Assembly (NCBI GenBank): GCA_016795105.1 | Contig: JAEUIH010000003.1 | Coordinates: 186,001 to 250,000, forward strand | DNA length: 64,000 nucleotides | Source: Planctomyces sp. | GTDB lineage: Bacteria; Planctomycetota; Planctomycetia; Planctomycetales; Planctomycetaceae | Direction: 5' to 3' | Shown: one piece after another, positions 7,201-28,587 of the stretch | Position numbering within the stretch: position 1 is the stretch's first letter | Layout of the letters: each line of letters begins with the position of its first letter | The notes under the pieces: model-generated | Database searches by the model: none | What the model was told of the DNA's origin: nothing | Seen by the model: only the letters and a program-made list of their open reading frames with translations | Translations under genes and position numbers: made by a program

Positions 7201-8082
7201 TGTTCGACCGGCAAGTGGAAGTTCAGTCGCACCCTGAAGACCGTCGCCGTTCTGGTCATTCCAGACAGTCCCCGTGATTGTTCCAACCTGCGGCAGGAGG
7301 TTTCCGAAATCGGCTCGAACAGTTGACTCGGTCGTAACCGTAACGGTTTTGTGATCAAGTGCCCCTTCCAGAGGAAACATGCCACCATTCGTTGGAAGCA
7401 GACCACCCACCGGGATCTCGTAAATGGTTGCCGGACCGGTTGGCAAACCGGCAAGGATGTAATCCCCGTCCGTGTCCGTAGTTGTCGTGGGTTCGCCGTC
7501 GGTGAGAACGCCGTCACCATTGGTGTCCACAAAGACGGTCCAGCCTTCGAGACCGTCTTCAGCGGCCTCCTGAATGCCGTTTTCGTTGGTGTCCTCGAAA
7601 ACAGACCCGGCGATCTGGCCTGTGAAGACCGGTGCGGTGACGTTCGGGAACTTGACGCGTGTTTCTTTGCCATCGCGAACATTCACCGTTTGATGGTCCG
7701 AAAAGCCGGGCGTTGGTGACCAGCCGGATTCGGGTATCTCATAGATCGACTGATTTCCGGCCGCGACACCGAGAAATGCGTACCTTCCTTTGGTGTCGGT
7801 TACAGTCGATACTTCACCGGTATTGAGCTTTGCATCGCCGTTGGTGTCTATGAAGACCGTCCAGCCAGCGAGTCCGTTTTCTTCCGGATCATCGGCGCCG
7901 TTTGCGTTTGCATCATGAAAAACAACGCCTGTAACATCTCCGGTCAACAGTTGACGACTCTCAAGGTGCTCAAGTGCAGGCTGAGGCGCGGCAGATGTTT
8001 TTTCCGGACTGCGCTTGCGGCGACGCTGGGAAGGAATCTGCTGAGCCTGAGAAATGAGCCACTGTTGCCATCGGGATTTCAT
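1240..8082 (-). CDS. Giant modular surface protein: SdrD-B repeats, integrin/vWA-like domain, cadherin-like repeats, beta-propeller
   Basis: A 2280-residue protein. I chose the ATG at 8082, because a GAGG lies 9 nt upstream and the product then begins with the basic stretch and LESRQLL (residues 40-46) typical of very large planctomycete exported proteins; the frame stays open upstream to a TTG at 8283. Order: eight SdrD-B type repeats (about 45-880), each starting like GTITGTVWNDQNGDG with acidic calcium-type loops; an integrin-beta/vWA-like domain (about 930-1260, VDVFLLFDDTGSF as MIDAS-like start); a linker Ig-like domain near 1340; five tandem cadherin-like/Ig repeats (about 1450-1930, period ~97 residues, each opening NDAPV and ending with a DSFTY strand); and a beta-propeller-like part with WVVD strands (about 1934-2170). 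Probably cell surface, adhesion or matrix. No sortase or PEP-CTERM signal is seen at the end. Confidence 0.9.
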   Translation of the reverse strand: MKSRWQQWLISQAQQIPSQRRRKRSPEKTSAAPQPALEHLESRQLLTGDVTGVVFHDANANGADDPEENGLAGWTVFIDTNGDAKLNTGEVSTVTDTKGRYAFLGVAAGNQSIYEIPESGWSPTPGFSDHQTVNVRDGKETRVKFPNVTAPVFTGQIAGSVFEDTNENGIQEAAEDGLEGWTVFVDTNGDGVLTDGEPTTTTDTDGDYILAGLPTGPATIYEIPVGGLLPTNGGMFPLEGALDHKTVTVTTESTVRADFGNLLPQVGTITGTVWNDQNGDGLQGATELPLAGRTVFVDVNSNGVADASEPVRITDSNGRFSFANIHTGVHRVTEELPAGWIMAEDRTAARTISVVRGVTYALPYPNLIPVDGSISGMVWNDSDGSGLRSASETGASGWQVYLDSNNNGSLDAEERSTVTAEDGSYTFLNVPYGTTTVRTSIPSTWVGTNPVSGASSFRLLNGENKSAVQFGVREKIGTITGTVWNDSNGDRLQGIGEAGMPDWSVYLDVNNNGSLDADEPSTQTATDGSYVFTRVPVGTWKVTEILQGGWSTSEGKTTSSLVNVIIGGVHRADFLNLVPVAGSVSGLIWNDQNSNGAQELTEVGMAGWQVYADTNRNGLLDAGEPTATTDAAGNYTISGVPYGTNTVREVVQEGFTATNRPGGIASVFLLNGEERTGLNFGNHEIAEYSISGTAYFDANHNGLLDSGERGLDGITVYLDLNNNGLQESTEPTTVTLADRYYTPGVNEAGTYTFSRLARGTYRVRESVPAELDATPETAREIIVSVGPGNQSGVNFGNTYRANEIHGVVFDDTDSDGTWDDSEYARPGVSVYVDMNRNDVLDDTEPRTVTGDDGSYAFTGLTPGAYIVREHSGTVGPHTYPVNGGGTLWPAGTSNPSIGNVTPSAITTVLADGQTLTQTISLTLPGDGGSLTNMVDVFLLFDDTGSFAGNSPIVRSAFPSIISTLQASLPGIDLGFGVGRLEEYGGFALEFANGRPFTLNQPIVSASTTGFSGSIQAALDRMAPGYGGDTPETDIEALYQLVTGRGFDGNNNGTVSDSGAAGLASTQLNPGASGDVPDFASFTADPANQVLAPSGNIGGAGFRSGALPIILTATDTGFAYQPKGETVIQGAGGVTLPISALTQASRSTTPFSSGAGIQETVTGLNALGALVIGLGTNDQASLDPRLGLESLAQLTGAVNRSTDTILNGTADPIAPGDPFYFQIASGFAGTVADGIVNAIRNAVTNVSMDITVRASDPRVRIVNHTGTIAGVTGGQTATFDIEFTGDGRPHRFDLQFVREGTDVVLGSIPVVLGTPVAGEGYSYDDLEDGEIHHSSHFGNYVTNTAPAFVAGPSQIIAEDAGPQTVDNWANGISPGTATESRQTVSFLVTTDNPALFSVQPSVSTGGTLTFTPAANANGTATVTIIARDNGGTGPEGVDSSEPQTFVISVTPENDAPVTTNDAWSVSESEVLTVPASGLLANDTDVEGDALSAVLVTPPLHGTVTLNTDGSFIYTPVPGYSGPDSFTYVAEDGSLRSAEAQVTIEVLPVNHAPVAGNDLYAVAEDTVLVLDAPGILANDSDADGNALTIIRVTDPSHGSLTIQPDGSITYTPSADYFGVDSFSYRVNDGRADSNIAVVTLEVTAVNDAPISMNDTWAATEDVTLTVGAGGVLTNDSDADGNPLTVVKVTDPAHGTLTLNADGSFIYIPDANYNGTDSFVYRATDGTTESGDTIVTINVGAVNDAPVAAPDSYSTLEDTTLTVGLPGLLGNDSDADGTPLTAIRVTSPAHGTLTLNSNGTFTYVPALNYSGPDSFTYRASDGVLSSATVTVSLSVTPVNDRPTATADNYSTDQNVPLSVPARGVLLNDTDADGDVLSAVILTAPTNGSLTLNTDGSFLYTPTAGFTGTDSFSYQATDVGGLTATGTVSISVNAVVPGAKFFVADLDSRSTYRYSASGSSIGSTALNKSDSKPRGIASNPTGTTQWVVDGSGAVFVYNKDGGLLGQWTLTNIRKPEGITVWGNDLWVVDPSQDRVFYFAGGATRRSGRAAATSSFALNSGNLDSTDLVSDGAHIWVVNDTLASDRIFRYTTTGTLEGSWSVSTSNPSPTGITLDPNNVNHLWVVDASTDRIYQYDAGTTRLSGSQEPGTTFVLAPGNTNPQGIADPLAAGEHTEEAPAQVSQGTIDPGMQIPMPGSTGNRLHSDSLKASPTMGDPSLTSTSKDRQSAASSVSRTRSERKPDLLKNGFQTTSDNHVVMASDMPEDTQLVDEMFADAGFFGRLEQL

Positions 8083-8279
8083 AATGTGCCGCCTCAAACG
8101 CTGTGTTGGAAAAGACCTGGCATCTGAGAGACCGATTCCCGTGGGATCAGAAGACGCCATGCGTTGAGAGGAGCGAAGGTAAAAGCGATTCACCGCCACG
8201 CTTTTTCGGATAAAGTCCGTTTTTCGAAAATTGCCTTGTTTCTTTGCAAACATCGGGACCGAAGTCAGAGTCCCGACTC

Positions 8280-9218
8280 TCAATTCGACATCGATGCAAA
8301 ATTGCGTTCCGGACTCGGTGGATTTGGGGACTTGCGTTTTGATCGGGAACCCGCCGCCGAAGGCTCCTGCAGCCTGCGTGGACGGTGAGTGGCAAGGAAG
8401 TTTCCGAGAATGTCGGCGGTGCCGTCGAAAACTTCTTCCTGACGAGCCGGGACCTGATGCCGGAAATTGATCCAGTCGAGATTTCCGCGGATCAGTTGTT
8501 CAGTGAGCCATGGGATTCCACGCGTATGTTGTCCATGATGATCCATTTCTTCAGGACATTCGAGGTAGAAGCCAGCGTCTGTTTTCAGCTCTGTTGAGTC
8601 ATACGCGGAATACGTGTGAAATGACCATGCGATATGGCTGATGGGAGTGACGTCCGGAAGGGGGTAACCGCCAAGTGGTGAAGGGGGATTGAAGACAAGA
8701 AATCTTCCTTCGGAGCCCAACTGTTGGGCAATCCGGGCGTTAATACAGTTTCCAAAGCTCTCGCCAATCAGGGTTGTTTTGGAGATATTCAAACCGAGGG
8801 CTCTAAGTAGCTGAGCAAAGTGATCGGCAACCGGATTGATTTTTACAGCGACTTTTGTTGGTGCCGGCATTCCAAAGAAGTCCGTTTCCCATGCTTCGCC
8901 AGACCAGTCGAGAATCAGGACATTTGCATTCGGGATGTTGTCTGCAAGACCTTGTGCAAGAGTGTGGAAGCGGTCATCCGGCAAGGTACCTCCAAATCCG
9001 TGCGTGATCAGGTATGAGTGATTTTGAGTATCGAACTTGTCGTTGCGATTTGTCAAAATCCTCACTGAAGGCTGGATCGTTGGTTCGGATGAATTTTCTG
9101 ACAGATTGCCTGACGCGAGTGGTGTCCATTTTGAAGACGTAACTGATGCATTGAGGCATGACGTATGCGAAACTTGAAAGGCAAGGCAGAACATGGTGAC
9201 GATCGCAGGTTTGAACAC
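8280..9218 (-). CDS. Exported alpha/beta hydrolase, pancreatic-lipase-like
   Basis: 312 residues starting at GTG 9218, chosen because AAGGAG sits 8 nt upstream. The N-terminus is a probable signal peptide (FKPAIVTMFCLAFQVSHTS). An alpha/beta-hydrolase core follows: ITHGFGG (71-77, oxyanion region), VLILDWSGEAW (100-110), then the nucleophile elbow GESFG with Ser154. The arrangement HGFGG...LDWSG...GESFG follows the animal pancreatic lipase pattern (PF00151), so a lipase or esterase role outside the cytoplasm is likely; the substrate is unknown. The C-terminus is a basic, proline-rich tail. It lies upstream of and co-directional with the giant surface protein gene (about 200 nt between its stop and the chosen ATG), so the two may be co-transcribed. 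Confidence 0.75.
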   Translation of the reverse strand: MFKPAIVTMFCLAFQVSHTSCLNASVTSSKWTPLASGNLSENSSEPTIQPSVRILTNRNDKFDTQNHSYLITHGFGGTLPDDRFHTLAQGLADNIPNANVLILDWSGEAWETDFFGMPAPTKVAVKINPVADHFAQLLRALGLNISKTTLIGESFGNCINARIAQQLGSEGRFLVFNPPSPLGGYPLPDVTPISHIAWSFHTYSAYDSTELKTDAGFYLECPEEMDHHGQHTRGIPWLTEQLIRGNLDWINFRHQVPARQEEVFDGTADILGNFLATHRPRRLQEPSAAGSRSKRKSPNPPSPERNFASMSN

Positions 9219-9535: not shown

Positions 9536-12500
9536 ATGAACTCAGAACAAGAGCAGAATCCGGGGGACTCGCTCGATCAGCAGGTGAATGCTGCAATTGC
9601 GGCGTACTATGCTGAGACCGAACGGCTTGGCACTGAGCCGGATCGAGCCGAGTTTCTGGCGCGTTATCCCCATGTGGCGGGAGAGTTGGCGGAATTCTTC
9701 GAAAACCTGGAACTGATCGGTGAATTGAGAGATCGTCAGCGATGCAGCAACGAGTTGAACTCGACCAATTTGACAGACAATTCCGCCGAGGAATCATCTT
9801 CGCTGGTAAACCGCAGGAGTTACGAATCGTGTCAGGATGAGGAGCAGCTGTGGTCAGGCGGGGTTCGCTATTTTGGCGAGTATGAAATTCTGGAGGTGTT
9901 GGGGCGAGGTGGCATGGGGGTCGTCTACAAAGCTCGAGAGACCAGGCTTGGACGCATCGTTGCTCTGAAGATGATCCGATCCGGCAACATGGCAACGCCG
10001 AACGACGTCAGGCGATTCAAGAAAGAGACTCGGTCTGCCAGTCGACTCGTTCATCCCGGAATCGTGTCCGTTCATCAGGTGGGAGTGTATCGGGGACAGC
10101 ACTACTACACGATGGATTATGTTGAGGCTGGGAGTCTGTCTGAACTTTGCCGATCCGGACCAACGCCACCGTCACAGGCTGCTGAATACGTCCTGCAAAT
10201 CGCTTTGGCGATGGAATATGCTCATCGAGAGAACGTTGTCCATCGTGATTTGAAGCCGGCGAATATTCTGCTGACAGCAAACGGCAGGGTTCGAATTACA
10301 GACTTCGGGCTGGCTCGACAACTCGGAGCTCACGATGAGTCAGGTCATCAGACTCTGACGGAAACCGGTCAGATTTTAGGAACTGCCGGATATATGTCTC
10401 CCGAACAGGCAAGTGGAAGGAACAGGCATGTCGGAGCACTTTCAGACATTTATTCGATGGGCGCAATTCTGTACGCGTTGCTGACAGGACGAGCGCCGTT
10501 TGTTGGAGAATCTGCTGCACACACGATTCTGCAGGTCCTGCGGGACGATCCGGTTTCTCCAAGGGTGTTCAACTCAAGGATACCAAGGGATCTCGAAACG
10601 ATTTGCCTGAAGTGTCTTCAACGAGAGCCTCGTCGCCGGTATGGCACGGCCGAGCAGCTTGCCTGTGATCTTCAGCGGTTCATTGAAGGAAAACCGATTC
10701 AGGGGAGAAAGTCGGGACGGATTGAACGAACGTATCGCTGGTGCATGCGGAATCGAGCTCTGTCGGGCCTGCTGGCTTTGGGAATTCTTGTGCTGTTGCT
10801 GATGCCGCTTGTCTATTGGTTTCAGGTGTCCACGGCCGTAACTGCCATTCAGAATGCCCGAGGTACTGCACTTCCGGCATTGATCAGTGAAACTCGACAA
10901 CGTTACCCGGACTCGCTTCTTAGATGGATGTTATTGTCCCACTTCCATGGTGAACCAGACCATGATGAGCGTTTGGTGCTTGCGATGGCATTATCTCATC
11001 TCAGCGAACCACAGACTCAGTATCTGATTGAGCAGCTCATGACTGTTTCTGCGGGTGATTTCGAAAACTATGTTGAGGCGCTCGAGACAGATCGTGAACG
11101 AGCCGTGAAAGTGATCAGTTCGCGAATCGATGAATGCCGTGCATTGAGTGAGTGGGAAAAGTTGGCGAGCTTTGCTGTCCTGGCACTCCGACTGGGAGAC
11201 GAATCGCTTTCTGCCGAGATCGTTCGTTGTGGAATGAGCCAGGACCCAACTCCCAGAACAGCATGGATCCACGCAATTGGCCGCTGGGAAGGTGAAACAA
11301 CAGCCCTGCTGGAGTGTATTCGCAGAACCTCCAACGAAGAGATTCGATCGGCCGTCTTTCAGGGAATGTCGACTCTGCCGGAAGATCAGGTTCGATCACA
11401 AGAGAAGGCGGAATGGCTCGATCTGGCACGATCCGCCATCACCGATCCGAATGCTCTCGTTGCCAGTAGTGCCAGAGTCCTGATCAGTAAATGGAATGTG
11501 GCTTTACCTGAGCAGGCCGTTTTACCTGCGGAACCGAAAGGAAACTGGTACCGAAATGTTCGAGGTCAGACCTTCTGTCTGGCGCCGGCGGGTCAACTTC
11601 ACAGGAAGCCTGCTGCAGCTGCATCGGAGGTGCCTGGTGGCTCGTCACGCGATGTCATACAGATTTCGATTCCGTTCTGGATTTGTGATTCGGAAGTCAG
11701 TGTCGGGCTGTTTCGTGAATTCGTGGAGGATCCTCAGTATCCATCGACGGAAAAACCGCCGCATCAGGTACATCATTCCGTGCAGCACAGCCCAACTGAT
11801 TTGCATCCAGTTCAGTACGTAACCTGGTACGATGCAATTTTGTTCTGCAACTGGCTCAGCATTAAAGATGGGTTCACCCCGGCATATCACAGAACGGGAG
11901 CGGTTGAGGTTCTGGCAAATCAGGAGATTGATGTTTGGCAACGAGATGAATCGGCCTCAGGATATCGACTGCCGACAATATCGGAATGGGAATATGCCTG
12001 CCTCGCAGGTGCCGAATCGACCTATTGTCACGGAGAAAATGAAGAATTGCTTTCCGGCTTTGCGGTCATCCATTCCGATCAAAGCGAGCCCTGTGGAAGT
12101 CGACTCCCAAATCACTGGGGCATTTTTGATATGCACGGTAATGTCTTCGAGTGGTGTGATGATCAGTTTCAGTTTCGTACAGTTCGGGGAGGCGCATTTT
12201 CCACGGGGCCAAAGTACTGCATTGCAACTTCAGGCCCCAATTACTCAGCATTGGCCAGAATGCCCAATATCGGATTTCGGGTTGTTCGCCCTGCGACAGT
12301 GACTGGACGTCAGGTTCCCTCCCAAAGCCCAGGCGTCATTAACCTGGGCGTCATCAAGTTGACTGGCCGAAGACTCTTTGAGTCCACTTCAGGACTCACC
12401 TGTCTGCAGTACTCGGAAGATAGTACGAAACTTGTGTTTGGGGGTTTTGATCGTGAAGCTGTGCTGCTTGATTTGCAGACTCTACAGGTCGTTCGTTCAT

Positions 12501-13591
12501 TCCGAGGGCACGAGGGTACGATTTGGACGTTGTCTCTGGCACCCGACGGCCGGACATTTGTTACGGGCAGTGAAGACAAGACGATTCGGCTTTGGGATAC
12601 AACCACCGGCGACGAACTCGACAAATTCACGGGCGGTGGGATCTTTTCCAATGTGCATTACACGCCGGATGGGTCACATGTGTACGCTACCTGTTGGGAT
12701 GGAAAACTCCGCATCTGGAATCTTCTGGGCAAGAAATTAACGGACTTGAGGGAGTACGACCTCGGTGAGGCTGCTCTTGATGCGACATTTCTCCCAGACG
12801 GGCGACGTTATTACGTCGGAACGATTCACGGAAATGTGTTCGAGTTCAGTGATTCGTCGGAGAAGCAGATGCATAAGTTCAGGACACACTCAGGCTGGAT
12901 TCACAGTCTTGTGTCTCTGGGGGCAGGTGGGCGAATCGTTTCGGCGAGCCACGATCATACTCTTCGTTTGAGAAACTATCTGACTGGCCGACTGGAACGG
13001 ACCTACAGAGGGCACAGTGGGGTTGTCAATGAAGTGCGAATGGTACCTGGAGGCGCTGCATTTGTTTCCTGCAGCCGAGATCGCACGATTCGTCAGTGGG
13101 ATACGTCTTCCGGGAATGAACTCGCACGTGGTGTCAGTACAGGCGAGCTTCGAGCGATCTCGATGAGGCCGGATGGAAAGGCATGTGTAACGGCTGGATT
13201 TGACGGTGCGATTCGTGAATGGGAACTGATCGTGACAACAGATGAGGACAACGACACCACCGCTGTCGGATCGGATACCCACGGTGACCTCGGAGAGTCC
13301 GGGTTATGGATGGACCGGGATGAGTTTCAGGATGAGTTTGATCGCCAGGCAAAAGAGGGCATGGTACCTGACGAAGTGGATATTGACGTTTCACAGGATG
13401 GCAGTCGTGTCGTCTACTCGGCGACCTGGAAGCCGCGAGGATCAGTAGAGTTTGCTACGAGACACGGGATTTCTGACGAGCAGCTCCACGATGAGGAAAT
13501 ACGCCTGTCCGCGATGGGGTTCCAGCGGCAGAGGATCAAGACAACTCGATGGCAGGGGGCCAATCTTCACATCGTAGTCTGGGCAAAGTAA
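9536..13591 (+). CDS. Membrane Ser/Thr protein kinase with FGE-sulfatase and WD40 domains
   Basis: 1351 residues; ATG with GGAG 7 nt upstream. Residues 1-110 are the acidic leader common in planctomycete kinases (EPDRAEFLARYPHVAGEL). The kinase domain (about 116-385) is complete: G-loop GRGGMG 123-128, Lys145, HRD 237-239, DFG 256-258, SPE 288-290. One membrane helix follows (about 411-429). Residues ~435-650 are helical and unassigned. An FGE-sulfatase/SUMF1 domain (about 660-920) shows FWICDSEVSVGLF, GYRLPTISEWEYAC and IFDMHGNVFEWC. At the catalytic site the pair of cysteines of true FGE is reduced to one (GGAFSTGPKYC), so it is probably a binding rather than an oxidising domain. WD40 repeats fill ~945-1233 (e.g. 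TGSEDKTIRLWDT), then a 118-residue tail. Likely a membrane sensor kinase with large recognition modules after the helix. Confidence 0.92.
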   Translation: MNSEQEQNPGDSLDQQVNAAIAAYYAETERLGTEPDRAEFLARYPHVAGELAEFFENLELIGELRDRQRCSNELNSTNLTDNSAEESSSLVNRRSYESCQDEEQLWSGGVRYFGEYEILEVLGRGGMGVVYKARETRLGRIVALKMIRSGNMATPNDVRRFKKETRSASRLVHPGIVSVHQVGVYRGQHYYTMDYVEAGSLSELCRSGPTPPSQAAEYVLQIALAMEYAHRENVVHRDLKPANILLTANGRVRITDFGLARQLGAHDESGHQTLTETGQILGTAGYMSPEQASGRNRHVGALSDIYSMGAILYALLTGRAPFVGESAAHTILQVLRDDPVSPRVFNSRIPRDLETICLKCLQREPRRRYGTAEQLACDLQRFIEGKPIQGRKSGRIERTYRWCMRNRALSGLLALGILVLLLMPLVYWFQVSTAVTAIQNARGTALPALISETRQRYPDSLLRWMLLSHFHGEPDHDERLVLAMALSHLSEPQTQYLIEQLMTVSAGDFENYVEALETDRERAVKVISSRIDECRALSEWEKLASFAVLALRLGDESLSAEIVRCGMSQDPTPRTAWIHAIGRWEGETTALLECIRRTSNEEIRSAVFQGMSTLPEDQVRSQEKAEWLDLARSAITDPNALVASSARVLISKWNVALPEQAVLPAEPKGNWYRNVRGQTFCLAPAGQLHRKPAAAASEVPGGSSRDVIQISIPFWICDSEVSVGLFREFVEDPQYPSTEKPPHQVHHSVQHSPTDLHPVQYVTWYDAILFCNWLSIKDGFTPAYHRTGAVEVLANQEIDVWQRDESASGYRLPTISEWEYACLAGAESTYCHGENEELLSGFAVIHSDQSEPCGSRLPNHWGIFDMHGNVFEWCDDQFQFRTVRGGAFSTGPKYCIATSGPNYSALARMPNIGFRVVRPATVTGRQVPSQSPGVINLGVIKLTGRRLFESTSGLTCLQYSEDSTKLVFGGFDREAVLLDLQTLQVVRSFRGHEGTIWTLSLAPDGRTFVTGSEDKTIRLWDTTTGDELDKFTGGGIFSNVHYTPDGSHVYATCWDGKLRIWNLLGKKLTDLREYDLGEAALDATFLPDGRRYYVGTIHGNVFEFSDSSEKQMHKFRTHSGWIHSLVSLGAGGRIVSASHDHTLRLRNYLTGRLERTYRGHSGVVNEVRMVPGGAAFVSCSRDRTIRQWDTSSGNELARGVSTGELRAISMRPDGKACVTAGFDGAIREWELIVTTDEDNDTTAVGSDTHGDLGESGLWMDRDEFQDEFDRQAKEGMVPDEVDIDVSQDGSRVVYSATWKPRGSVEFATRHGISDEQLHDEEIRLSAMGFQRQRIKTTRWQGANLHIVVWAK

Positions 13592-13796
13592 ACGAAGGTG
13601 GGGAATTTCCACAAAGTCTTTAGGTGTTTTTGCGAATCCTCAGTTGGATTTCTCGCGACTCTCAGAAAAACACACTTCGGGCTTGCTGAAGAGCCCTGCT
13701 TAAGGGGAGAATTCTGAGGAAAGCAGGGGAGCTGCCTGTGAATTCGTGAGTTGCGAATTCAGCGTATCTTTTAGGCGAATTATCCGGGATCGCAGC

Positions 13797-16043
13797 ATGG
13801 CCGGTGAAGAATCCCTCGATGCAGAAACGCAGGACGAACTTTGGACACAGGCTGTCCGGATTTGTCGTGAATTTGAGGCGGACTGGCGTCGTGGAGGGCG
13901 TCCTGACTTTGGTGAGTTCCTGACACGTATACATGTTGGTCAGAGATCCGTTCTGTTTGCGGAGCTGGTGGATATTGATATCAGGTATCGCACAGCGGCA
14001 GGGGAGGTTGCGTCGATAGCCGAGTATCGTGCTCGGTATCCGGAAGTAGTAACAACGGCCGATACGATCCGCGCGGAAGAGACTCAGGAGAAGAAGCTCT
14101 TCCTTGGCAGGTTGCGACAGATCGGCAACTTTCGGTTGGTCGAAATGGTTGGCTCCGGCGAGTTTGGTGTGGTCTGGAAAGCAAAGGACCTTAAGCTGGA
14201 GCGTGAAGTCGCTATCAAGCTTCCGACTGATCGAAGCCTTACTCGGGAGTACGAAGCGGAGTTCTTTCACGAAGCAAAGTCTGCTGCGAGGCTAAGTCAC
14301 CAGGGGATTGTGCCAGTCTTCGAATATGGGATTCATCACGGCTTTGCGTTTATCGTAACGGAGTTCGTGCATGGTGTGACTCTCAAGGAGTGGATTCGTC
14401 AGAAGACGATTACCCCTCGCGATGCGGCTGAGCTTTGCGAAAAGATCGCAGACGCGTTGCAGCATGCTCACGAGAATGGGGTTATCCATCGAGATCTGAA
14501 GCCAGGAAACATCTTGATCGAAAAGACCGGGCGTCCTCGCATTACAGACTTCGGGCTTGCAAAGCGTCTTGGAACAATGACAACTGTTGCAGGGTCCGGA
14601 GTTGTTGTTGGAACATACGCTTATATGAGTCCGGAGCAGGCCACAGGAGAATCTCTTGAGATCGATGCTCGTTCCGACGTCTATTCACTGGGGGTATTGC
14701 TCTACGAATTGCTCGCGAAAAAACTACCCTTCTCCAACGATCTCCGAATTGTCGTTTCTCAAATTCTTAATCAGAAACCCCAGCCTCTTACAGAACTCTC
14801 CCTCGGTATCCCGGAATCCCTGGCAGGCATCTGTGAGAAGTGCCTGGAGAAGAAGCCTGAGGACAGGTATCAGTCAGCGTCTGAATTGAGGGACGACCTG
14901 CTTCGTTATCTTTCCGATCAGCCCACGCTGATTAAGGGGCCCAGACAAGCGAATTCAGATTCAGGCACTCAGCGGCGCAGGTTGCTGCGGCTTGTAGCAA
15001 TTGGATTGATGCTGATTTCCACTGTTCCGATCAGTTCTTATATGATGTACCGCATTGCTGAAGGCCCACCCGCCGAAGCGGCGAATTCTGAGGTTGATCG
15101 GACGTTCGAAGTCATCGTTCCGACGAGTCCTGCTGGTTCAGTGTATTCCGTTGTTATGATAGATCCCGTGACAGGCGAACCGCGTTATGACCAAAGTTCT
15201 CTGAGGGTGTTGAATTCTCATTTACCAGTCAGCCTGCTTCCAGGGCTTTACCAGGTGAATGTCTCGTATAATGAAGCTGATGGTATCCGGAGGCATTCCG
15301 TCTATCGTACTGTGCCTGGGAAGAGTATGGCGTCAGGTGGCGTGAGTTGGAGAGATTCTCCGGTGAGTGCGTCAGGCACGGTTCATTGGCCAGTTATTGA
15401 TTTGCCGCCAGTTGATGTTGCGAATGATATGGTCTATGTGAAGGGCACTGACTCCTTTACTGTGAACGGACCGCAAGGATCGAGGACTTACGAAGTTAGT
15501 CCATTTTATGTGTCGTCACGTTTGTTCACGTTCGGCGACTTCCAGAATCTCAGGCCAGGGGAAGATGGCTGGGACAAGTCAATGCCTGCAACGAAGCAAC
15601 CGCCCGAACTCCCTATGCCATGTCGATGCGATGCCGCTCTGCATTGGGCGGAAGAGTCCGGAGGTCGGCTGCTGACAGAACTCGAATTTGCATGGCTGGC
15701 GCACCTGGCAATGAATGCTCACCAAAATCAGATGTCTCCCTCAGATGTGTTCGAAATTCCCGTTGATCAGATGCTGCCAGGTCAGCAACATCGCCGAATT
15801 GAGGGCATTCTCAATGGGTCTCGTGAATGGACCAGTACCTGGGTGCACTCTCCGATGATCACCTCAGAGCGGAGAATTGTTACGCCGGAAAACATTCCGG
15901 CAGATCAGTTTCGAGTCATTCGAGGAGTTGACGTCGAGCAATTGCCGGATGCAAAATTCAAATACAATCAGGTTTTCGAAGCAGGCAATATCAACAAGCA
16001 TTATCCCAATGTTGGGTTTCGGATTGCCAGATCAGCCATGTAG
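13797..16043 (+). CDS. Membrane Ser/Thr protein kinase with C-terminal FGE-like domain
   Basis: 748 residues from ATG 13797; the frame extends to a GTG at 13746 but the ATG directly precedes the typical leader. Kinase domain (about 110-375): glycine loop GSGEFG, Lys141, HRD 231-233, DFG 251-253, MSPE. One membrane helix (about 395-419) separates it from the C-terminal half. There, residues ~540-748 look like a degenerate FGE-sulfatase domain: DMVYVKGTDSF, a segment with GGRLLTELEFAWLAH, NGSREWTSTW, and the closing YPNVGFRIARS, the family's usual last strand. The catalytic cysteines of true FGE are not visible. The clostripain-like gene begins about 21 nt after the stop, so the two are almost certainly one operon; the kinase at 9536 is 205 nt upstream on the same strand. 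Confidence 0.9.
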   Translation: MAGEESLDAETQDELWTQAVRICREFEADWRRGGRPDFGEFLTRIHVGQRSVLFAELVDIDIRYRTAAGEVASIAEYRARYPEVVTTADTIRAEETQEKKLFLGRLRQIGNFRLVEMVGSGEFGVVWKAKDLKLEREVAIKLPTDRSLTREYEAEFFHEAKSAARLSHQGIVPVFEYGIHHGFAFIVTEFVHGVTLKEWIRQKTITPRDAAELCEKIADALQHAHENGVIHRDLKPGNILIEKTGRPRITDFGLAKRLGTMTTVAGSGVVVGTYAYMSPEQATGESLEIDARSDVYSLGVLLYELLAKKLPFSNDLRIVVSQILNQKPQPLTELSLGIPESLAGICEKCLEKKPEDRYQSASELRDDLLRYLSDQPTLIKGPRQANSDSGTQRRRLLRLVAIGLMLISTVPISSYMMYRIAEGPPAEAANSEVDRTFEVIVPTSPAGSVYSVVMIDPVTGEPRYDQSSLRVLNSHLPVSLLPGLYQVNVSYNEADGIRRHSVYRTVPGKSMASGGVSWRDSPVSASGTVHWPVIDLPPVDVANDMVYVKGTDSFTVNGPQGSRTYEVSPFYVSSRLFTFGDFQNLRPGEDGWDKSMPATKQPPELPMPCRCDAALHWAEESGGRLLTELEFAWLAHLAMNAHQNQMSPSDVFEIPVDQMLPGQQHRRIEGILNGSREWTSTWVHSPMITSERRIVTPENIPADQFRVIRGVDVEQLPDAKFKYNQVFEAGNINKHYPNVGFRIARSAM

Positions 16044-16064
16044 TCCGCAACGGCCGTGAAATCA

Positions 16065-17204
16065 ATGACAACTCGTGCTTCAATCTGCGTGATTTGTCTG
16101 GGTGGAGATAAAGCGACCTGCGAGCTCATCGACACTGTTCTTGCAGAGCTTCAGGTTGGGCTTAGTGCTTACCAACAACGCTCTCTCAAGCCGATGATTC
16201 AGTGCTGTTATATTCATGGAGACTCAGGAAGGGATGCACGTTGTTTTGAGATTTCAGAACACCAGCCCTCGTTTAGATGGCATTCGGAGACTCGAGCATC
16301 TCTCAGCGAGTCTGTGTCACCTGAGTCAAACAGTACTGCTTTGCGGGGGGACCCAGGCGAGCAGGTCAGGTCGTTCTGTGAATTTCTAAAGGGCGTCCTG
16401 CCCTCCAGTGGTCCTGTTCACTTCATTGTTGTTGGGCATGGTGTTCCTGCGATTGGAGTCAGTTCAGTCCTTCATCCAGTTGCAGCGAATCACACACTGC
16501 ATGATGTTGCTCGGAGTCAGGATCATCTGCTGATGTATGACGATCTCGGGCATTCCATGAGTCTTGTGCCGCGGTTGAACTCACTGACCCTGCACATGTG
16601 CTATGGCAGTTCCATTGAGGCGATCTGTTCATTGTCTGCCGCACCTGTTCAATTTGCATTTCAGGGCGAGATGAGGACTGCGTGTCTGAAAGACTGGCTT
16701 GGAGCGATCGCTGGTCCGCACTTTGATCCGGTTGAGGCGGCGGAGGCAGCATTCAAGGCGATTTCCGATTGCCCGCATCAGGAGCCCATCAGTCGAGCGA
16801 GTGCGCATTACACGAATTCGGACTCGTTGCTTTCGTGTCTGAATCGTCTTGGGGCAGAACTGCTTTGCATTCTTGATGTCGCCGAAAGTGGCGTGGAACT
16901 GCTGGCTCGGATTCGGCTCAGAAGTGCTGTCGCATGTTCCGTGGATGTGCAGAGATTCTGCCATCTGATCGCTGCTGAGACGGCGTTTGCTGATGAATGT
17001 CGAGCAGCGGCGGCGGAACTGTCAGCTGCAGTTGATGACCTACAGTTCGCTCAGTTGCCATGGCATCATGACGAGTTGCTCGGGATCAATCTCTATTTTC
17101 CACAACCCGGAGCTGAAGTTCGAATCGTTGAGCAACTGCCGGCAAAAATTCAGGAGCAGGCACCAGACTGGTGCCTGCTCCTTAGGAAATGGCAAAGCTA
17201 CTGA
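16065..17204 (+). CDS. Clostripain-like (peptidase C11, caspase-fold) protein
   Basis: 379 residues from ATG 16065 (a GTG at 16056 is an alternative; neither has a clear ribosome site). Family evidence is motif-based. An N-terminal strand (ASICVICLGGDKATCELID) is followed by an open-sheet strand PMIQCCYIHGD. The histidine motif VHFIVVGHG (His125) matches the WGHG of clostripain. After it come YDDLG and the strand LTLHMCYGSSIEA, where Cys179 takes the place of the catalytic Cys of DACLMGSIEVA; the usual preceding Asp-Ala is His-Met here. Near residue 340 GINLYFP matches the GLSIYFP signature at the end of C11 domains. Expected activity is Arg/Lys-specific cysteine proteolysis; the change next to the Cys leaves activity open. 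No signal peptide, so cytoplasmic. Operon with the upstream kinase suggests a phospho-regulated protease. Confidence 0.72.
   Translation: MTTRASICVICLGGDKATCELIDTVLAELQVGLSAYQQRSLKPMIQCCYIHGDSGRDARCFEISEHQPSFRWHSETRASLSESVSPESNSTALRGDPGEQVRSFCEFLKGVLPSSGPVHFIVVGHGVPAIGVSSVLHPVAANHTLHDVARSQDHLLMYDDLGHSMSLVPRLNSLTLHMCYGSSIEAICSLSAAPVQFAFQGEMRTACLKDWLGAIAGPHFDPVEAAEAAFKAISDCPHQEPISRASAHYTNSDSLLSCLNRLGAELLCILDVAESGVELLARIRLRSAVACSVDVQRFCHLIAAETAFADECRAAAAELSAAVDDLQFAQLPWHHDELLGINLYFPQPGAEVRIVEQLPAKIQEQAPDWCLLLRKWQSY
17153..17181 (-). terminator. Perfect 13-bp hairpin, probable terminator of the minus-strand gene
   Basis: GGAGCAGGCACCA (17153-17165) and its exact reverse complement (17169-17181) are separated by only GAC. 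Read on the minus strand the stem is followed by TGAATTTTT, which fits a rho-independent terminator for the gene ending at 17217. It lies inside the last 20 codons of the convergent clostripain-like gene. Confidence 0.6.
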
Positions 17205-17216
17205 CAGAATCAGCGA

Positions 17217-17966
17217 TTATTCGACCGGAGCGACCATTCGAATGAACGCGTAGTCAACATCTTTAGGGTTGGTGCTGTTGCTGATGCGGATTTGCATCAG
17301 TCCCGGGACCGGGTTCGAGACGATTTGTTCTTCATTCCGAATCGTGGTTGTAGCATTCTTTGTATCTGTACCTCTGATTACCGAGAACTTTGGTTTGTCG
17401 GCACCGGGATCTGCGACCTGCAGACCGATATGGCTGTAAGTCTTCTTTGTGTCCGAAACAACTCGCCAGACAATCGCAAAATGTGTTTTCTCTTCTGTTT
17501 CGGTCTTTACGACAAACTGAACCAGGACTGGCTTCGTGTAGAGTGAAGGAAACGGCTGTTTAATGGAGACCTTTGCTCCGGCATATCCACCGGGTACAGG
17601 AGACAATTCTTCAATCTTGCGAAGGAAGCTCTCTGTTGTATTCAGTTCAAGGGCAGACAACGGGAGCCCATTTTCAGTCTTGTAATAGAGATTGACTTCC
17701 GGAGGTTGAAGGCTGCTGAGCGTCAGGCAGTTAAAGCAGCTGTCTGGGTCGTTGCAGGTTTCGCCCGAAATCGGGTCTCCGATGAAGCCGGTCGGGTATT
17801 TGAAAATACAACCCATTGAGCTGGTTTCGCAGACGACAGCGTAGTTCATCCAGCCGCCGGGAACCGGATACATTGGGACCACTCGACAGAGGCAGTTGGT
17901 GGCCTCGCTGTTGCAGACAAAGAGTGTAAACGCCAGCACGAACGTGAAAACGCTGAGTGGTTTCAT
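17217..17966 (-). CDS. Secreted protein of unknown function
   Basis: 249 residues from ATG 17966 (GGAG 8 nt upstream; an in-frame start at 17990 has less support). It begins with a clear signal peptide (MKPLSVFTFVLAFTLFVCNSEA). The first mature part holds several cysteines (CLCRVV, CETSSMGC, CNDPDSCFNC), suggesting disulphides and export. The rest looks like beta-rich sequence, with FVVKTETEEKTHFAIVWRVV and an ending in which SNPVPGLMQIRIS resembles a jelly-roll or Ig strand. I recognise no family. It converges on the clostripain-like gene with 12 nt between them. Confidence 0.75.
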   Translation of the reverse strand: MKPLSVFTFVLAFTLFVCNSEATNCLCRVVPMYPVPGGWMNYAVVCETSSMGCIFKYPTGFIGDPISGETCNDPDSCFNCLTLSSLQPPEVNLYYKTENGLPLSALELNTTESFLRKIEELSPVPGGYAGAKVSIKQPFPSLYTKPVLVQFVVKTETEEKTHFAIVWRVVSDTKKTYSHIGLQVADPGADKPKFSVIRGTDTKNATTTIRNEEQIVSNPVPGLMQIRISNSTNPKDVDYAFIRMVAPVE

Positions 17967-18160
17967 GATGGAAACTCCACGAGACATCATCGCGAAAAAG
18001 GATTGATCATAGGATGGCCAGGTCCGGGATTATTGGGGAGGGATGTTACTGAGTCCAGCCCCGCAGAGATGTTTCGGGGAATTCCATAGGGATTTTGGAT
18101 GCGTGAGTGTGCGGGGGGTTTCGGTGACCTGGGGGACTTGCTGGATGCTCAGCCAGAGTG

Positions 18161-18949
18161 TTACTGCAGTGCTTGAAGCAGGTGCTGAATTTCATCATTG
18201 AGGTCGTTTTCGTCGTTGAGTGTGTGGCTGACCTCCTGAATCAGAAGTTCCCGATATCTCTTCCGCATCCGATGAACCGCGACCTTTACTGCGGACTCGG
18301 TCATGCGGAGCGATTCGGCGATTGATGCAAGAGACTGGTTGTCATCGCCGAGCAGGTATTCACGACACATCTCAAAGAGTTCTGATCGGTTTCGAGCCGC
18401 CATTTCCTGTTTGAGCAAATGCAGAACGCGAGCAAGAAGAGTCATGGCCCAGCGTCGCTCGTAAGTCTGTTCGGGCGTTATGGTATCCACTGGATGTAGC
18501 GATAGATAAGATTCCGACTGCAGGGTATCGAGAGACAGGATAGAGTGTGAGCCTCCTCGTTTGATGGCTTTTTCGCGGTCAGACTGATTGCAGAGAAATC
18601 GCTGAAACGCTGTCAGCAGGAATGTTCGAAATCGGCCACGACTCTGATCTGCAGACTTCAGGTAGTGCTTTTCGAGCATGACTGCAAAGAAGGCCTGAGT
18701 CATGTCCGCGGCATTGTCCGGCGAATAGCCCTTTCGCCTTGCATATTCATAAAGTGGCGACCAATACGCACGACATAAGACTTCCAGCGCAGCGACCGCA
18801 TCAGCCTGCTCAGACGCGCCGGCTGCGACGATGACACTCCAATGAGTCGTGGAGAACTGACGTGGACCAGACTGCATGGCCGATTGCGCCCCCGAACCGG
18901 TAATGTTCCTCAGACAGCCCGACACTATACACTTCAGATCGTCTGACAT
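18161..18949 (-). CDS. ECF-family RNA polymerase sigma factor, planctomycete type
   Basis: 262 residues; an alternative ATG at 18877 would start just before the conserved QFSTTHWSVI. Region 2 shows LEVLCRAYWSPLYEYARRKG, NAADMTQAFFAVML and SRGRFRTFLLTAFQRFL; region 4 ends in SIAESLRMTESAVKVAVHR, the helix-turn-helix for the -35 element. The TTHWSV start and GRFRTFL motif mark the large planctomycete ECF group, which often lies near Ser/Thr kinases and has no membrane anti-sigma factor next door. The gene starts 43 nt after the stop of the lectin/dockerin protein gene, on the same strand, and probably ends the operon 28274 to 18161. Close relative at 34586. Confidence 0.88.
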   Translation of the reverse strand: MSDDLKCIVSGCLRNITGSGAQSAMQSGPRQFSTTHWSVIVAAGASEQADAVAALEVLCRAYWSPLYEYARRKGYSPDNAADMTQAFFAVMLEKHYLKSADQSRGRFRTFLLTAFQRFLCNQSDREKAIKRGGSHSILSLDTLQSESYLSLHPVDTITPEQTYERRWAMTLLARVLHLLKQEMAARNRSELFEMCREYLLGDDNQSLASIAESLRMTESAVKVAVHRMRKRYRELLIQEVSHTLNDENDLNDEIQHLLQALQ

Positions 18950-18992: not shown

Positions 18993-21900
18993 CTAGTCGT
19001 CGGTAAACAAATCGTCCCTGAGTTTCCTGCCGAAGGCCCGTGAGACAAGTGAAAGATCAGTCAGATTGACGAATCCGTTCCCATTCGCATCTGATTCCGG
19101 ATCTGATGTGCGGTTTGCCAGCAGAACCTGAGATTTGTCCGATGCATCGACCCTTCCGTCCCCGTTTACGTCTCCAAGAAGTCGATGAAAACTCATTTTT
19201 GGTGAATCTGCTTCAAACAGCCCATCCTGATTATGGTCATACACAATTTGGTAGTAGCCATCGCCGACATTTAGATTTCGGCTTCCTCCAATCCCCTGCA
19301 GACCGAAGTCTAATTGAATCCGACTGCCATTAATCGTGTGAGCAGGGAGTGACATCATGCCAACGCTGTTTCCATTCAGATCAAATCGATGCAACTGAAG
19401 TTGGTTGTTATTGAGCATATCGAGGAGCCCGTTTGGCTGATCAAAGATCAGGTCGACGTAACGCACATAGGATCGCTGATTCAAACCTCGTTCCACGTCG
19501 ATGCCAGTCAATTTAATCCTGTCCAGCCCTGGGTCCACGAGTTCTACGTCCGAGAATTCGATTCTGTCCGAGTTTGGAAAGACCACAGCACCGGTTTCCG
19601 ATGCAGAATACTGTGTCAGAATTTGGTCAAAGGCGGAGAACGGAGACTGCGTGCTGTTTTTCAGCTGCAAAACATCGATATCTGTGCCAGAGGGCTGTTC
19701 ATCGCCCAAAAGCCGGAGTCCTGTCGGTATGACACTCTCTGCCGACAGGTTAATCACAAGATGATTGGAACCGAGGCTGCCAGCGATGGTGAGGTCAGCA
19801 GCAAGGTATTGTGTGAAGAAAACATTATGCTGGAAGCCATCTGCGAAGTTGTCGGCAATGTGAATCGTATTGCCTGCTGTTGCCAGTTGAAGTCCGGCCT
19901 GAACACCTTCGGTAGCAGGTGTGATAAAAATCTGTCCTGTCTGCCAGGAAACAAGTCCGATTGTTCCAGTCAGCTCTGATGGCAAATCAAGGGCATGGAA
20001 GATCAGGTCTTCGATAATAAACGGGTCAGACACGGGTGTCTGATCAAGTTCGAACTGCAGATGACTGCCTGTGAACAGATGCGACAGATCGAGACGTTCT
20101 GCGGCTTCATAGTGAATCAGCTGACCGGCTCCGCGAACGTCGAGTATGTTGTCAGCATGTTCGTCGAAAATCAGCAGTGCACCAGACTCAACAAAGATGG
20201 CCGATTGTGAGAAGATGTCTGATTCTTCGACACGTACGCCTCCCAGACTAGCATCACCGAGTCGCAGAGTTGCACCGCTGCGAACCAGGATTGTTGGGAA
20301 ATCCCCGGTACCACTGTCTGCTCCGGCGGAGGTCTGAGAGAGTACTCCATTGGCGACAATGACGTGACCGCTGTTGACGGTGAGCGCGGGAGACCCGGGG
20401 CCGACTGTCGATGTACCGAGGTCAATGCTCAGTATGACGTTTTCCGGTACCGATGCCATCAGGCCATCATAGACTTCTCCGTTGAGATCCTGCTGAAGAC
20501 TGAGTTCGACATCGATAGTGTCTGAGCCTGAAGAGTCCGGATTTACAAGGCTGAGCGCATCAAGGAAATTTGCGGCATCTGCATTCGATGCCTCTTCAAG
20601 AGCCAGTGAATTCGCGTTGACCATTGCGGCAATTGTCTGAAACGCGGTCTCTATGTAACTGGCAGTCAGCGACTCACCTTTCGCAAGGAGCATTTCCCCC
20701 GTTACGCGAAATTGATTGCCCGTCATCAGATGAGTGACAACAGCATCCGAAGAGAAGTCGGTTGGCCCATTTTCAGGCCACAATTCACTCTGGAGTTGTC
20801 CGATCGCAGAATCGGCGCCCTCGGCATACAAAACTCCACCGGTGACAAACACATTGTCCACTCGCGCGTGCAGGGAATAGGATTCTGCTATTGCATCGAA
20901 CGTCTCTAAATCGGGATCAGGGCGATTGACGATCATGGGATAACGAAGGAATGTTCCACCCGCCAGTTGGCTGCCAAACATCGCATCCGATAACTGTATG
21001 TTCGGACCGTTGAGTATTAGACCAGCTGCACCGAGACCATGCCGAGGCTGTGGGATGTTCGGATCCGTACTTCCCGGGCCGAAGAAACTGCTGGAAACGG
21101 GCGTGAATTCATACGATGTCGTGCCACGATTCCAAAGATTCTCGAGGTATTCCCATCCCGTATGTACATCAACCGTCCCGTTGCCATCCGGAGAGTTTTC
21201 AACCACAACGGCCGCAAATCCGTTGGCGCGAAACTGTGATCCGAGGATGAGTTTAGATTGTTGAGGTCCGCTGGACGTTCGTGATGCAATGAGTCCGGCT
21301 CCATGATTGTCCCATCCTTCGATCGGAGAACCAGCTTCAGCTGAGAACGGGTTGTCAATATTCAATCCCGTGTGGACAATGTCGGTGCCGATGACTGTCG
21401 CCTGTGCAACATCCGTTAGTCGCAGGCCTGCATAGTTCGGAAGGGTTGCATTTCCAAGTCGTCCAGCTCGACGGATTGTCATATCCTGGAGAACAACTTC
21501 AGCTGCCCCAGACACAATGATTCCGTCTCCTGCTGCGTCAATGATGTTGATGCCGTTGATTCGAAGGAATTGATCATCCGTGGACGTTCCCCGGTTCCAT
21601 GAGATGGCCGCCTGACTCGCGTCTGAAACCTGATCCATGAGCAGGTTTACATGATAGCCTGAAAATCCCGACACGGGATCCCAGCTGGGCTGAGCCTTCA
21701 AATGAAGGCTCTTGCCTTCAATATGGACGGCAGTTCGGTAGTCGCCAGGAGCAAACAGCAGAGTTCCGCCGTCAGGGAGTTTCGAGATGATCTCCTGCAG
21801 CCTTGCTTCATCCATTGATGGGTCGATCAGACCAAACGTATCTTCGTTGTTGCAATAGATTTCGACATCGCGCAATGTGACATTGACCTGATACTGGTCA

Positions 21901-28274: not shown

Positions 28275-28587
28275 CTTTCTTCAGATCTTCAGAGACAGCG
28301 CAGCAGCGAACCGTCCGGCTATTCTGCGGTTGGGACGTCTATTCTCCGGTTTTTTCCGGGGACAGGCTCTTTGAGGCTTTCAGCGAATGAGGAGCCGCAG
28401 TCACGCATATTTTTCCCCAGGCCGGCACAATTTTTCTGGATTCTCAATCTCTTTCCGTTGCTGGTCTGAGTCCTGGCTTGCTGGTCCCCCGCGCTCCGCC
28501 TCTGATCGGACCACTTCATTCAGCGATCCGCAGGGATATACTGCCGGGAACGTGGTCGAGAGAATTGGCGGAACAGGGTGATTGATT
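28275..28587. other. Divergent intergenic region (313 bp)
   Basis: Lies between the minus-strand giant protein gene and the plus-strand TPR kinase gene. It should contain both promoters. Apart from AGGGTG ahead of the kinase ATG, I find no clear operator, hairpin or small gene. Confidence 0.5.

What the first reader, a model, noticed from the sequence alone, without database searches (positions are those of the whole stretch)
9536..17204. Kinase-FGE / kinase-FGE / clostripain-like protease locus
Two membrane Ser/Thr kinases, each with an FGE-type domain after the membrane helix, are followed within about 21 nt by a caspase-fold protease candidate. Kinases, FGE-sulfatase domains, WD40 propellers and caspase-like proteases are each recurrent parts of bacterial signalling and conflict systems, but I know of no named system with exactly this set. 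A model: the FGE and WD40 parts sense something, the kinases signal inward, and the protease acts as effector.
Basis: partly seen in the sequence, partly recalled or inferred. Interest (0 to 1): 0.72.

Follow-up and report, generated by a model that had tools for sequence, protein, structure and literature searches.

The report
Receptor kinase, secreted partner, caspase-like peptidase
In planctomycete bacteria a membrane receptor kinase is paired with a fast-evolving, probably secreted cysteine protein encoded head-on beside it, and in four lineages, including this one, a clostripain-like (caspase-fold family) peptidase gene lies between the two, which hints at a ligand-receptor-protease signalling unit.

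Summary
Kinase 1 (9536-13591) is Pkinase-TM-FGE-WD40 and of a common type (81 of 170 order genomes, own included, match its middle/FGE part at E<=1e-20). Kinase 2 (ATG 13797-16043) has a degenerate FGE part (Pfam E=0.18). The 16065-17204 product has no close relative found. It scores as a divergent C11 (clostripain-type) protein, through its C-terminal half; H125 and C179 align with the catalytic pair. The pair is conserved: 3 of 54 other kinase-2 loci carry a C11-type gene beside the kinase, in one kinase group with the window. The 17217-17990(-) gene belongs to a four-cysteine, probably secreted family without a credible Pfam or NCBIfam match. It sits convergent to this kinase type: 24 of 34 loci not used to build the profile, against 0 of 20 control loci. 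Kinase ectodomain and secreted protein co-diverge; the C11 gene lies exactly between them. Best reading: a secreted partner sensed by a receptor kinase, with a C11-like peptidase as optional output. The genomic module is well supported; the mechanism is inferred.

The parts
13797..16043 (+). Kinase 2: N-terminal region, Ser/Thr kinase domain (about 14133-14879), one TM segment (about 14982-15038), ectodomain with a PEGA-like part (weak, by a sub-threshold hit in one relative and by eye) and a degenerate FGE-like part (profile match 15111-16040). The ORF opens at GTG 13746; ATG 13797 is the likelier start.
16065..17204 (+). C11-like (clostripain-type) cysteine peptidase candidate, 379 aa, no clear signal peptide; candidate catalytic His at 16437-16439 (H125) and Cys at 16599-16601 (C179); C-terminal GINLYFP motif
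17217..17990 (-). Probably secreted four-cysteine protein, 257 aa, convergent partner of the kinase; family-conserved Cys 35, 61, 79, 88
17152..17182 (-). Intrinsic-terminator-like hairpin behind the convergent Cys-protein gene (14-bp stem, T-rich tail), overlapping the 3' end of the C11-like gene
18161..18949 (-). ECF sigma factor upstream of the Cys-protein gene; many related loci have an ECF gene directly upstream of the kinase instead. Link to the unit inferred from position only.
9536..13591 (+). Kinase 1 (Pkinase-TM-FGE-WD40), probably a neighbour rather than part of the conserved unit

Best explanation
The locus is a receptor-kinase unit. Shown: a membrane Ser/Thr kinase with a PEGA/FGE-like ectodomain is encoded tail-to-tail with a four-cysteine, probably secreted protein whose sequence diverges together with the kinase ectodomain, and in four lineages a C11-like gene lies between them. 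Inferred: the secreted protein is the kinase's own extracellular partner (ligand, co-receptor or sensed surface component). Binding or release at the ectodomain sets the activity of the cytoplasmic kinase. In many loci the output would be the adjacent ECF sigma factor, as in PknS-EcfK and PknT-EcfP. In this locus and three others the kinase additionally or instead controls a C11-like peptidase, taken to be cytoplasmic, by phosphorylating it or its inhibitor, which then cleaves cellular targets.
For: Kinase-C11 pairing: 3 of 13 C11 places over the Pfam cut-off in 170 order genomes lie beside kinase-2-type genes; in the ten other places no kinase of this set was found at E<=1e-10 on the stretches fetched. 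In a 54-row tree the four kinases fall in one 10-row group (98/96), with window and G181 sisters (97/90). The window peptidase scores 18.7 bits, E=4e-5 among 1036 sequences, with a profile of 14 canonical C11 domains that excludes the kinase-linked ones; best of 2000 shuffles 3.0 bits. Cys-protein family: a seed profile without the window member finds it at E=8.8e-6 among 56 neighbours. Of 34 loci not used to build the profile 24 have a member; 30 of the 34 have at least 1000 nt of 3' flank or a hit. Over all 90 loci, those used for the profile included, 71 of 74 hits lie 3' of and convergent to the kinase within 2.1 kb; 0 hits in 852 ORFs of 20 kinase-1-type loci, 19 of which have at least 1000 nt of 3' flank. 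Of 69 kinase-Cys-protein pairs 63 gaps are <=284 nt, two are 497 and 975, and the four largest (1173-1989 nt) are exactly the four C11 loci. Co-divergence of ectodomain and Cys protein: Spearman 0.225 after thinning by ectodomain identity (51 of 69 kept), partial 0.21 given kinase-domain distance, 1 of 2000 permutations as high. Location: by a crude hydropathy scan the window peptidase lacks the N-terminal segment that two canonical planctomycete C11 proteins show, and 63 of 69 Cys proteins have a hydrophobic 15-mer in the first 130 residues. ECF next to the kinase: 25 of 32 same-strand upstream neighbours scanned match the ECF model.
Against: The catalytic half of the window peptidase alone gives no significant C11 score (-2.9 bits; 578 of 3000 shuffles as good); the signal sits in residues 211-379, about 8 bits of it in one motif, and two helical decoys reach 12.4 and 11.9 bits with canonical domains and 16 bits with the larger profile. 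The AlphaFold model failed. Only 4 of 55 kinase loci have the peptidase, and six loci of the same tree group lack it; the G181 kinase is a long branch whose place the tree program calls unsure. In G181 the peptidase gene runs with the Cys-protein gene, not the kinase. The window kinase has kinase 1, not an ECF gene, upstream. No signal-peptide predictor was at hand: the N-terminal 11-mer of the window peptidase reaches 1.70 against 2.1-2.4 in the canonical pair, and hydrophobic stretches at 118-136 (read here as the strand before the His) and at 410-428 of the G181 protein leave export or membrane association open. A weak PADLOC hit of the Cys protein (JAB, E=0.013) was not followed. No interaction, phosphorylation or cleavage is shown.
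Confidence: 0.44

Rival explanations
1. The C11-like protein acts on the Cys protein instead: it processes it, or a complex of it, before or during export, and the kinase only reports on the product.
For: In all four loci the peptidase gene lies next to the Cys-protein gene, and in G181 it is codirectional with that gene and convergent to the kinase.
Against: No clear signal peptide in the peptidases by a crude scan, so the two proteins would meet only inside the cell; 65 of 69 kinase-Cys-protein pairs have no C11 hit between them.
Confidence: 0.21
2. Neighbourhood only: a kinase-Cys-protein pair into which an unrelated C11-like gene fell, or was kept, with no shared pathway.
For: Peptidase present in 4 of 55 loci and very divergent; members of the same tree group without it exist.
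Against: Same slot each time, one kinase group, overlap of 4 nt in G005, intact reading frames; no C11 hit at E<=1e-3 in the 20 control loci.
Confidence: 0.18
3. One reading: both FGE kinases and the WD40 propeller form one sensing and conflict system with the protease as effector.
For: Three codirectional genes with gaps of 205 nt (to ATG 13797) and 21 nt.
Against: Kinase 1 type is widespread and absent upstream in the two other C11 loci where that side is visible; PADLOC gave kinase-type models for the kinases and none for the peptidase (the best 25 of 37 rows seen for each kinase).
Confidence: 0.08
4. The 16065 product is not a peptidase: a C11-derived protein whose catalytic half has decayed and that serves as a binding or inhibitor subunit.
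For: Catalytic half not recognisable by profile; C11-domain proteins that look inactive occur in the order (by eye) and class (L146 with R and S at the two positions).
Against: His and Cys kept at the right columns in this and all three kinase-linked relatives.
Confidence: 0.09

Closest known systems
Planctomycete ECF sigma factor - Ser/Thr kinase pairs (groups such as ECF59, ECF61, ECF62, ECF217; PMC8999054, passages read)
   Same: ECF gene next to a membrane Ser/Thr kinase; 21 of the 33 proteins scanned match Sig-70_plancto1 at E<=0.001.
   Different: Here the kinase also has a convergent Cys-protein partner and, in four loci, a C11-like gene; the passages read do not mention either.
PknS-EcfK of Xanthomonas citri (PMC13147305, abstract and outline read) and PknT-EcfP (PMC8999054, passages)
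   Same: Membrane Hanks-type kinase activating a cognate ECF sigma factor by phosphorylation, the likely mechanism of the core unit.
   Different: No secreted partner or peptidase in what was read; here the output may be a peptidase.
Peptidase family C11 (clostripain; PF03415; PMC4357240, passages)
   Same: His then Cys order, aligned C-terminal half, GLSIYFP-type motif.
   Different: No clear signal peptide, not reached by the Pfam model, encoded beside a kinase.
NTP-dependent conflict systems with caspase-like domains (PMC7159879, passages)
   Same: Caspase-fold peptidases joined to signalling modules in planctomycetes and other aggregating bacteria.
   Different: Their core parts as I recall them (vWA, MoxR, VMAP, STAND-type ATPases) were not among the hits listed for the 12 window proteins given to Pfam; this unit is membrane-receptor based.

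Membership tests
Peptidase C11 (clan CD) | Score over the Pfam PF03415 cut-off | tested here: not met
   No PF03415 hit for the window protein; L037 37.8 and L060 25.8 reach the cut-off of 25.8, L046 24.8 just misses it on the protein, 26.1 with neighbours in the genome search
Peptidase C11 (clan CD) | Sequence homology to C11 proteins | tested here: met
   Custom canonical profiles, E=1e-3 to 4e-5 among 1036 sequences; carried by the C-terminal half only, decoys at 12 bits
Peptidase C11 (clan CD) | Catalytic His and Cys in order | tested here: met
   H125 and C179 in the catalytic columns of the alignment
Peptidase C11 (clan CD) | Caspase-like fold | tested here: inconclusive
   Single-sequence model, mean pLDDT 38
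Peptidase C11 (clan CD) | Cys-dependent peptidase activity | not testable with these tools
   none
FGE-sulfatase domain (kinase 2) | Score over the PF03781 cut-off | tested here: not met
   11.9 of 23.3 bits
FGE-sulfatase domain (kinase 1) | Score over the PF03781 cut-off | tested here: met
   102.1 bits
ECF-kinase signalling pair | ECF gene directly beside the kinase | tested here: not met
   In the window the ECF gene lies beyond the Cys-protein gene (18161-18949) and shows no TIGR02984 match at E<=0.001
ECF-kinase signalling pair | Kinase phosphorylates and activates the sigma factor | not testable with these tools
   none
Known anti-phage system (PADLOC) | Complete named gene set | tested here: not met
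   Four window proteins scanned: kinase-type models for the two kinases (best 25 of 37 rows seen each), none for the peptidase, JAB E=0.013 for the Cys protein

The most novel reading that the evidence does not exclude
A class-wide bacterial ligand-receptor kinase system: each locus encodes its own fast-diversifying secreted cysteine ligand and the matching receptor kinase, which together work as a self or kin recognition pair; in some lineages recognition is wired to a cytoplasmic caspase-fold peptidase that carries out a regulated, possibly self-harming, response, a bacterial parallel to receptor-kinase and caspase signalling.
Probability: 0.17. Interest if true: 0.88.

Novelty: new variant of a known kind. 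Interest (0 to 1): 0.66.

Why it matters
Planctomycetes carry many membrane Ser/Thr kinases with FGE-like ectodomains whose signals are unknown. A probably secreted protein encoded beside one kinase family, diverging with its ectodomain and present in several planctomycete families, is a concrete candidate for such a signal and can be tested by simple binding and deletion experiments. The C11-like insertion would be a case of a caspase-fold family peptidase attached to a bacterial receptor kinase.

Tried and rejected
Close relatives of the 16065 product: none in genome contigs or, in 170 order genomes, beyond two weak partial hits judged chance (E 0.008 and 0.009). More kinase-linked C11 proteins with a two-row profile: nothing at E below 0.04 beyond the two rows used; but that profile also failed to list the known G181 member and the window one, so it says little. 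Apparent C11 hits in L209 and L225 (E about 8e-4) look like OmpH/Skp-like helical proteins by eye and were rejected; they show that E-values near 1e-3 from the larger custom profile are not safe. The first small profiles: three kinase-linked or four canonical sequences alone did not separate the window protein from shuffles; all seven gave 5.9 bits against 0.7. Viral contigs: no relatives of C11 or of the kinase ectodomain. Synteny in three congeners: no match to the C11 or Cys-protein region, only short kinase-like stretches and flank pieces elsewhere. Dropped rows: 7 of 17 class C11 loci tried were left out of the profile because the slices I took held stop codons; L062 gave no BLAST hit and was left out of the 55-locus set; one row under 400 aa was left out of the tree; of 35 same-strand upstream ORFs, kinase 1 and two of 83 aa were left out of the ECF scan.
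Full report
Observation. Kinase 1 is Pkinase, TM, FGE and WD40; kinase 2 is Pkinase, TM and an ectodomain in which Pfam does not see FGE above threshold (11.9 bits, cut-off 23.3). The third ORF starts 21 nt after kinase 2 and has no NCBIfam, PADLOC or PDB sequence match and one unrelated sub-threshold Pfam hit (E=0.059).

Is it a C11 protein? Profiles of 11 or 14 canonical planctomycete C11 domains score it at 14.0 and 18.7 bits (E=1e-3 and 4e-5 among 1036 sequences), against a best of 4.8 and 3.0 bits in 2000 shuffles. With the three kinase-linked sequences added it reaches 22.3 bits, shuffles 6.4. H125 and C179 fall in the catalytic columns; notebook notes that say H124 are off by one. Against this: split in two, the catalytic half scores -2.9 bits and the C-terminal half 19.6. 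Masking the GINLYFP stretch lowers the latter to 11.0, and two helical decoys reach 12.4 and 11.9. So homology rests on the C-terminal half, on motif order and on context. The AlphaFold model was too poor to use.

Is the pair conserved? The ectodomain of kinase 2 finds relatives in 46 of 170 order genomes. I studied 55 such loci, the window included. PF03415 over the same 170 genomes gives 13 places over cut-off, two of them only with neighbouring stretches in the frame. Three are immediate neighbours of kinase-2-type genes: G016 (63 nt after the kinase), G005 (overlap of 4 nt) and G181 (convergent, 18 nt). The kinase tree of 54 rows puts all four in a 10-row group (98/96), with window and G181 as sisters (97/90) and G016 with G005 (92/97). 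The six other members are closely related loci without a C11 hit. The tree is drawn from a midpoint root and flags G181 as a long branch.

The gene convergent to these kinases encodes a protein of mostly about 200-400 residues, 63 of 69 with a hydrophobic stretch near the start by a crude scan, so probably secreted. Thirty-nine members align with three invariant cysteines and a fourth nearly so. Pfam and NCBIfam show no credible family (best E 0.0048 and 0.043, each in one member of 39; one Pfam model touches four members at best E 0.034). A profile seeded without the window member finds the window protein at E=8.8e-6 among 56 neighbours. Of 34 loci fetched later from the same class, 24 have a member; of the ten without, four (L203, L213, L218, L220) have under 800 nt beyond the kinase, so 24 of 30 with room. 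Over all 90 loci, those used for the profile included, 71 of 74 hits are convergent at the kinase 3' side. Twenty loci of kinase-1-type genes, 19 with at least 1000 nt of 3' flank, gave none. In 14 of 69 pairs a gene with a pilin-like N-terminus lies just upstream of the Cys-protein gene (found by motif); the two checked are DUF1559. The window genome has four kinases of this type, each with a Cys-family gene on its 3' side, one of them 975 nt away.

Geometry and co-divergence. Of 69 pairs, 63 have gaps of at most 284 nt, two have 497 and 975, and the four largest, 1173 to 1989 nt, are the four C11 loci. Distances between ectodomains correlate with distances between Cys proteins (0.336, best of 500 permutations 0.145), more than kinase-domain distances do (0.152, best 0.181). 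After thinning to 51 pairs the values are 0.225 (0 of 2000) and 0.118 (82 of 2000), and the partial correlation given the kinase domain is 0.21 (1 of 2000). These rest on rough identity distances from MAFFT alignments of very divergent proteins and share the species tree.

Mechanism. An ECF sigma gene precedes the kinase in at least 25 of the 54 other loci: 25 of 32 same-strand upstream neighbours scanned match the ECF model, and the remaining loci have other or no visible neighbours there. Membrane kinases that phosphorylate and activate their ECF partner are known (PMC13147305 abstract and outline; PMC8999054 passages), and planctomycete ECF groups predicted to work this way are listed there. 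FGE-type domains are the third commonest accessory domain of planctomycete kinases and mostly periplasmic (PMC11032199 passages). I infer that the ectodomain senses the Cys protein, and that the C11-like protein is a cytoplasmic output in four lineages. The cytoplasmic placing rests on a crude hydropathy scan only. The gene order in G181, where the peptidase runs with the Cys-protein gene, keeps the rival that it acts on the partner alive.

Kinase 1. Relatives of its middle and FGE part occur in 81 of 170 order genomes, own included, at E<=1e-20. None lies upstream in the two other C11 loci where that side can be seen. I treat it as a neighbour.

Literature. Searches showed, in the rows listed, no paper describing the Cys family or a kinase-C11 unit; I saw titles and the starts of abstracts there, and passages or outlines of seven papers. 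The library holds open-licence PMC papers only, and Jogler et al. 2012 is not held, so this is not proof of absence.

Change on checking.

Verdict.

Noticed in passing
L123 7446-12227, L124 292-5022, L125 4101-9104, L126 7455-12164, L127 7833-12440: Proteins of 1535-1667 aa with a Pfam C11 match in which the HG and DAC motifs look lost, and an alpha/beta-hydrolase-like C-terminal end by eye; recalls the caspase plus alpha/beta-hydrolase pairings described in PMC7159879.
   Followed up: no
window 1240-8283 (-) and G000:C144:9718-11190: A cadherin/SdrD-repeat adhesin-like gene near this locus has a 69% DNA-identical stretch about 6.5 kb from a paralogous kinase-Cys-protein pair (L035) in the same genome.
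   Followed up: partly
window 18993-22898 (-) and 23790-28274 (-): Large proteins with dockerin-type ends (the second below the Pfam cut-off), the first with a C-type lectin domain.
   Followed up: no
window 28582-32382 (+): A further Ser/Thr kinase, with TPR repeats.
   Followed up: no
window 17152-17182: A 14-bp hairpin that looks like the Cys-protein gene's terminator on one strand and is coding 3' end of the C11-like gene on the other.
   Followed up: yes
L129 9855-10889, L130 9583-10728 and 12 other pairs: Pilin-like genes (the two checked are DUF1559 with an N-methyl motif) directly upstream of the Cys-protein gene; a possible fourth part of the unit.
   Followed up: partly
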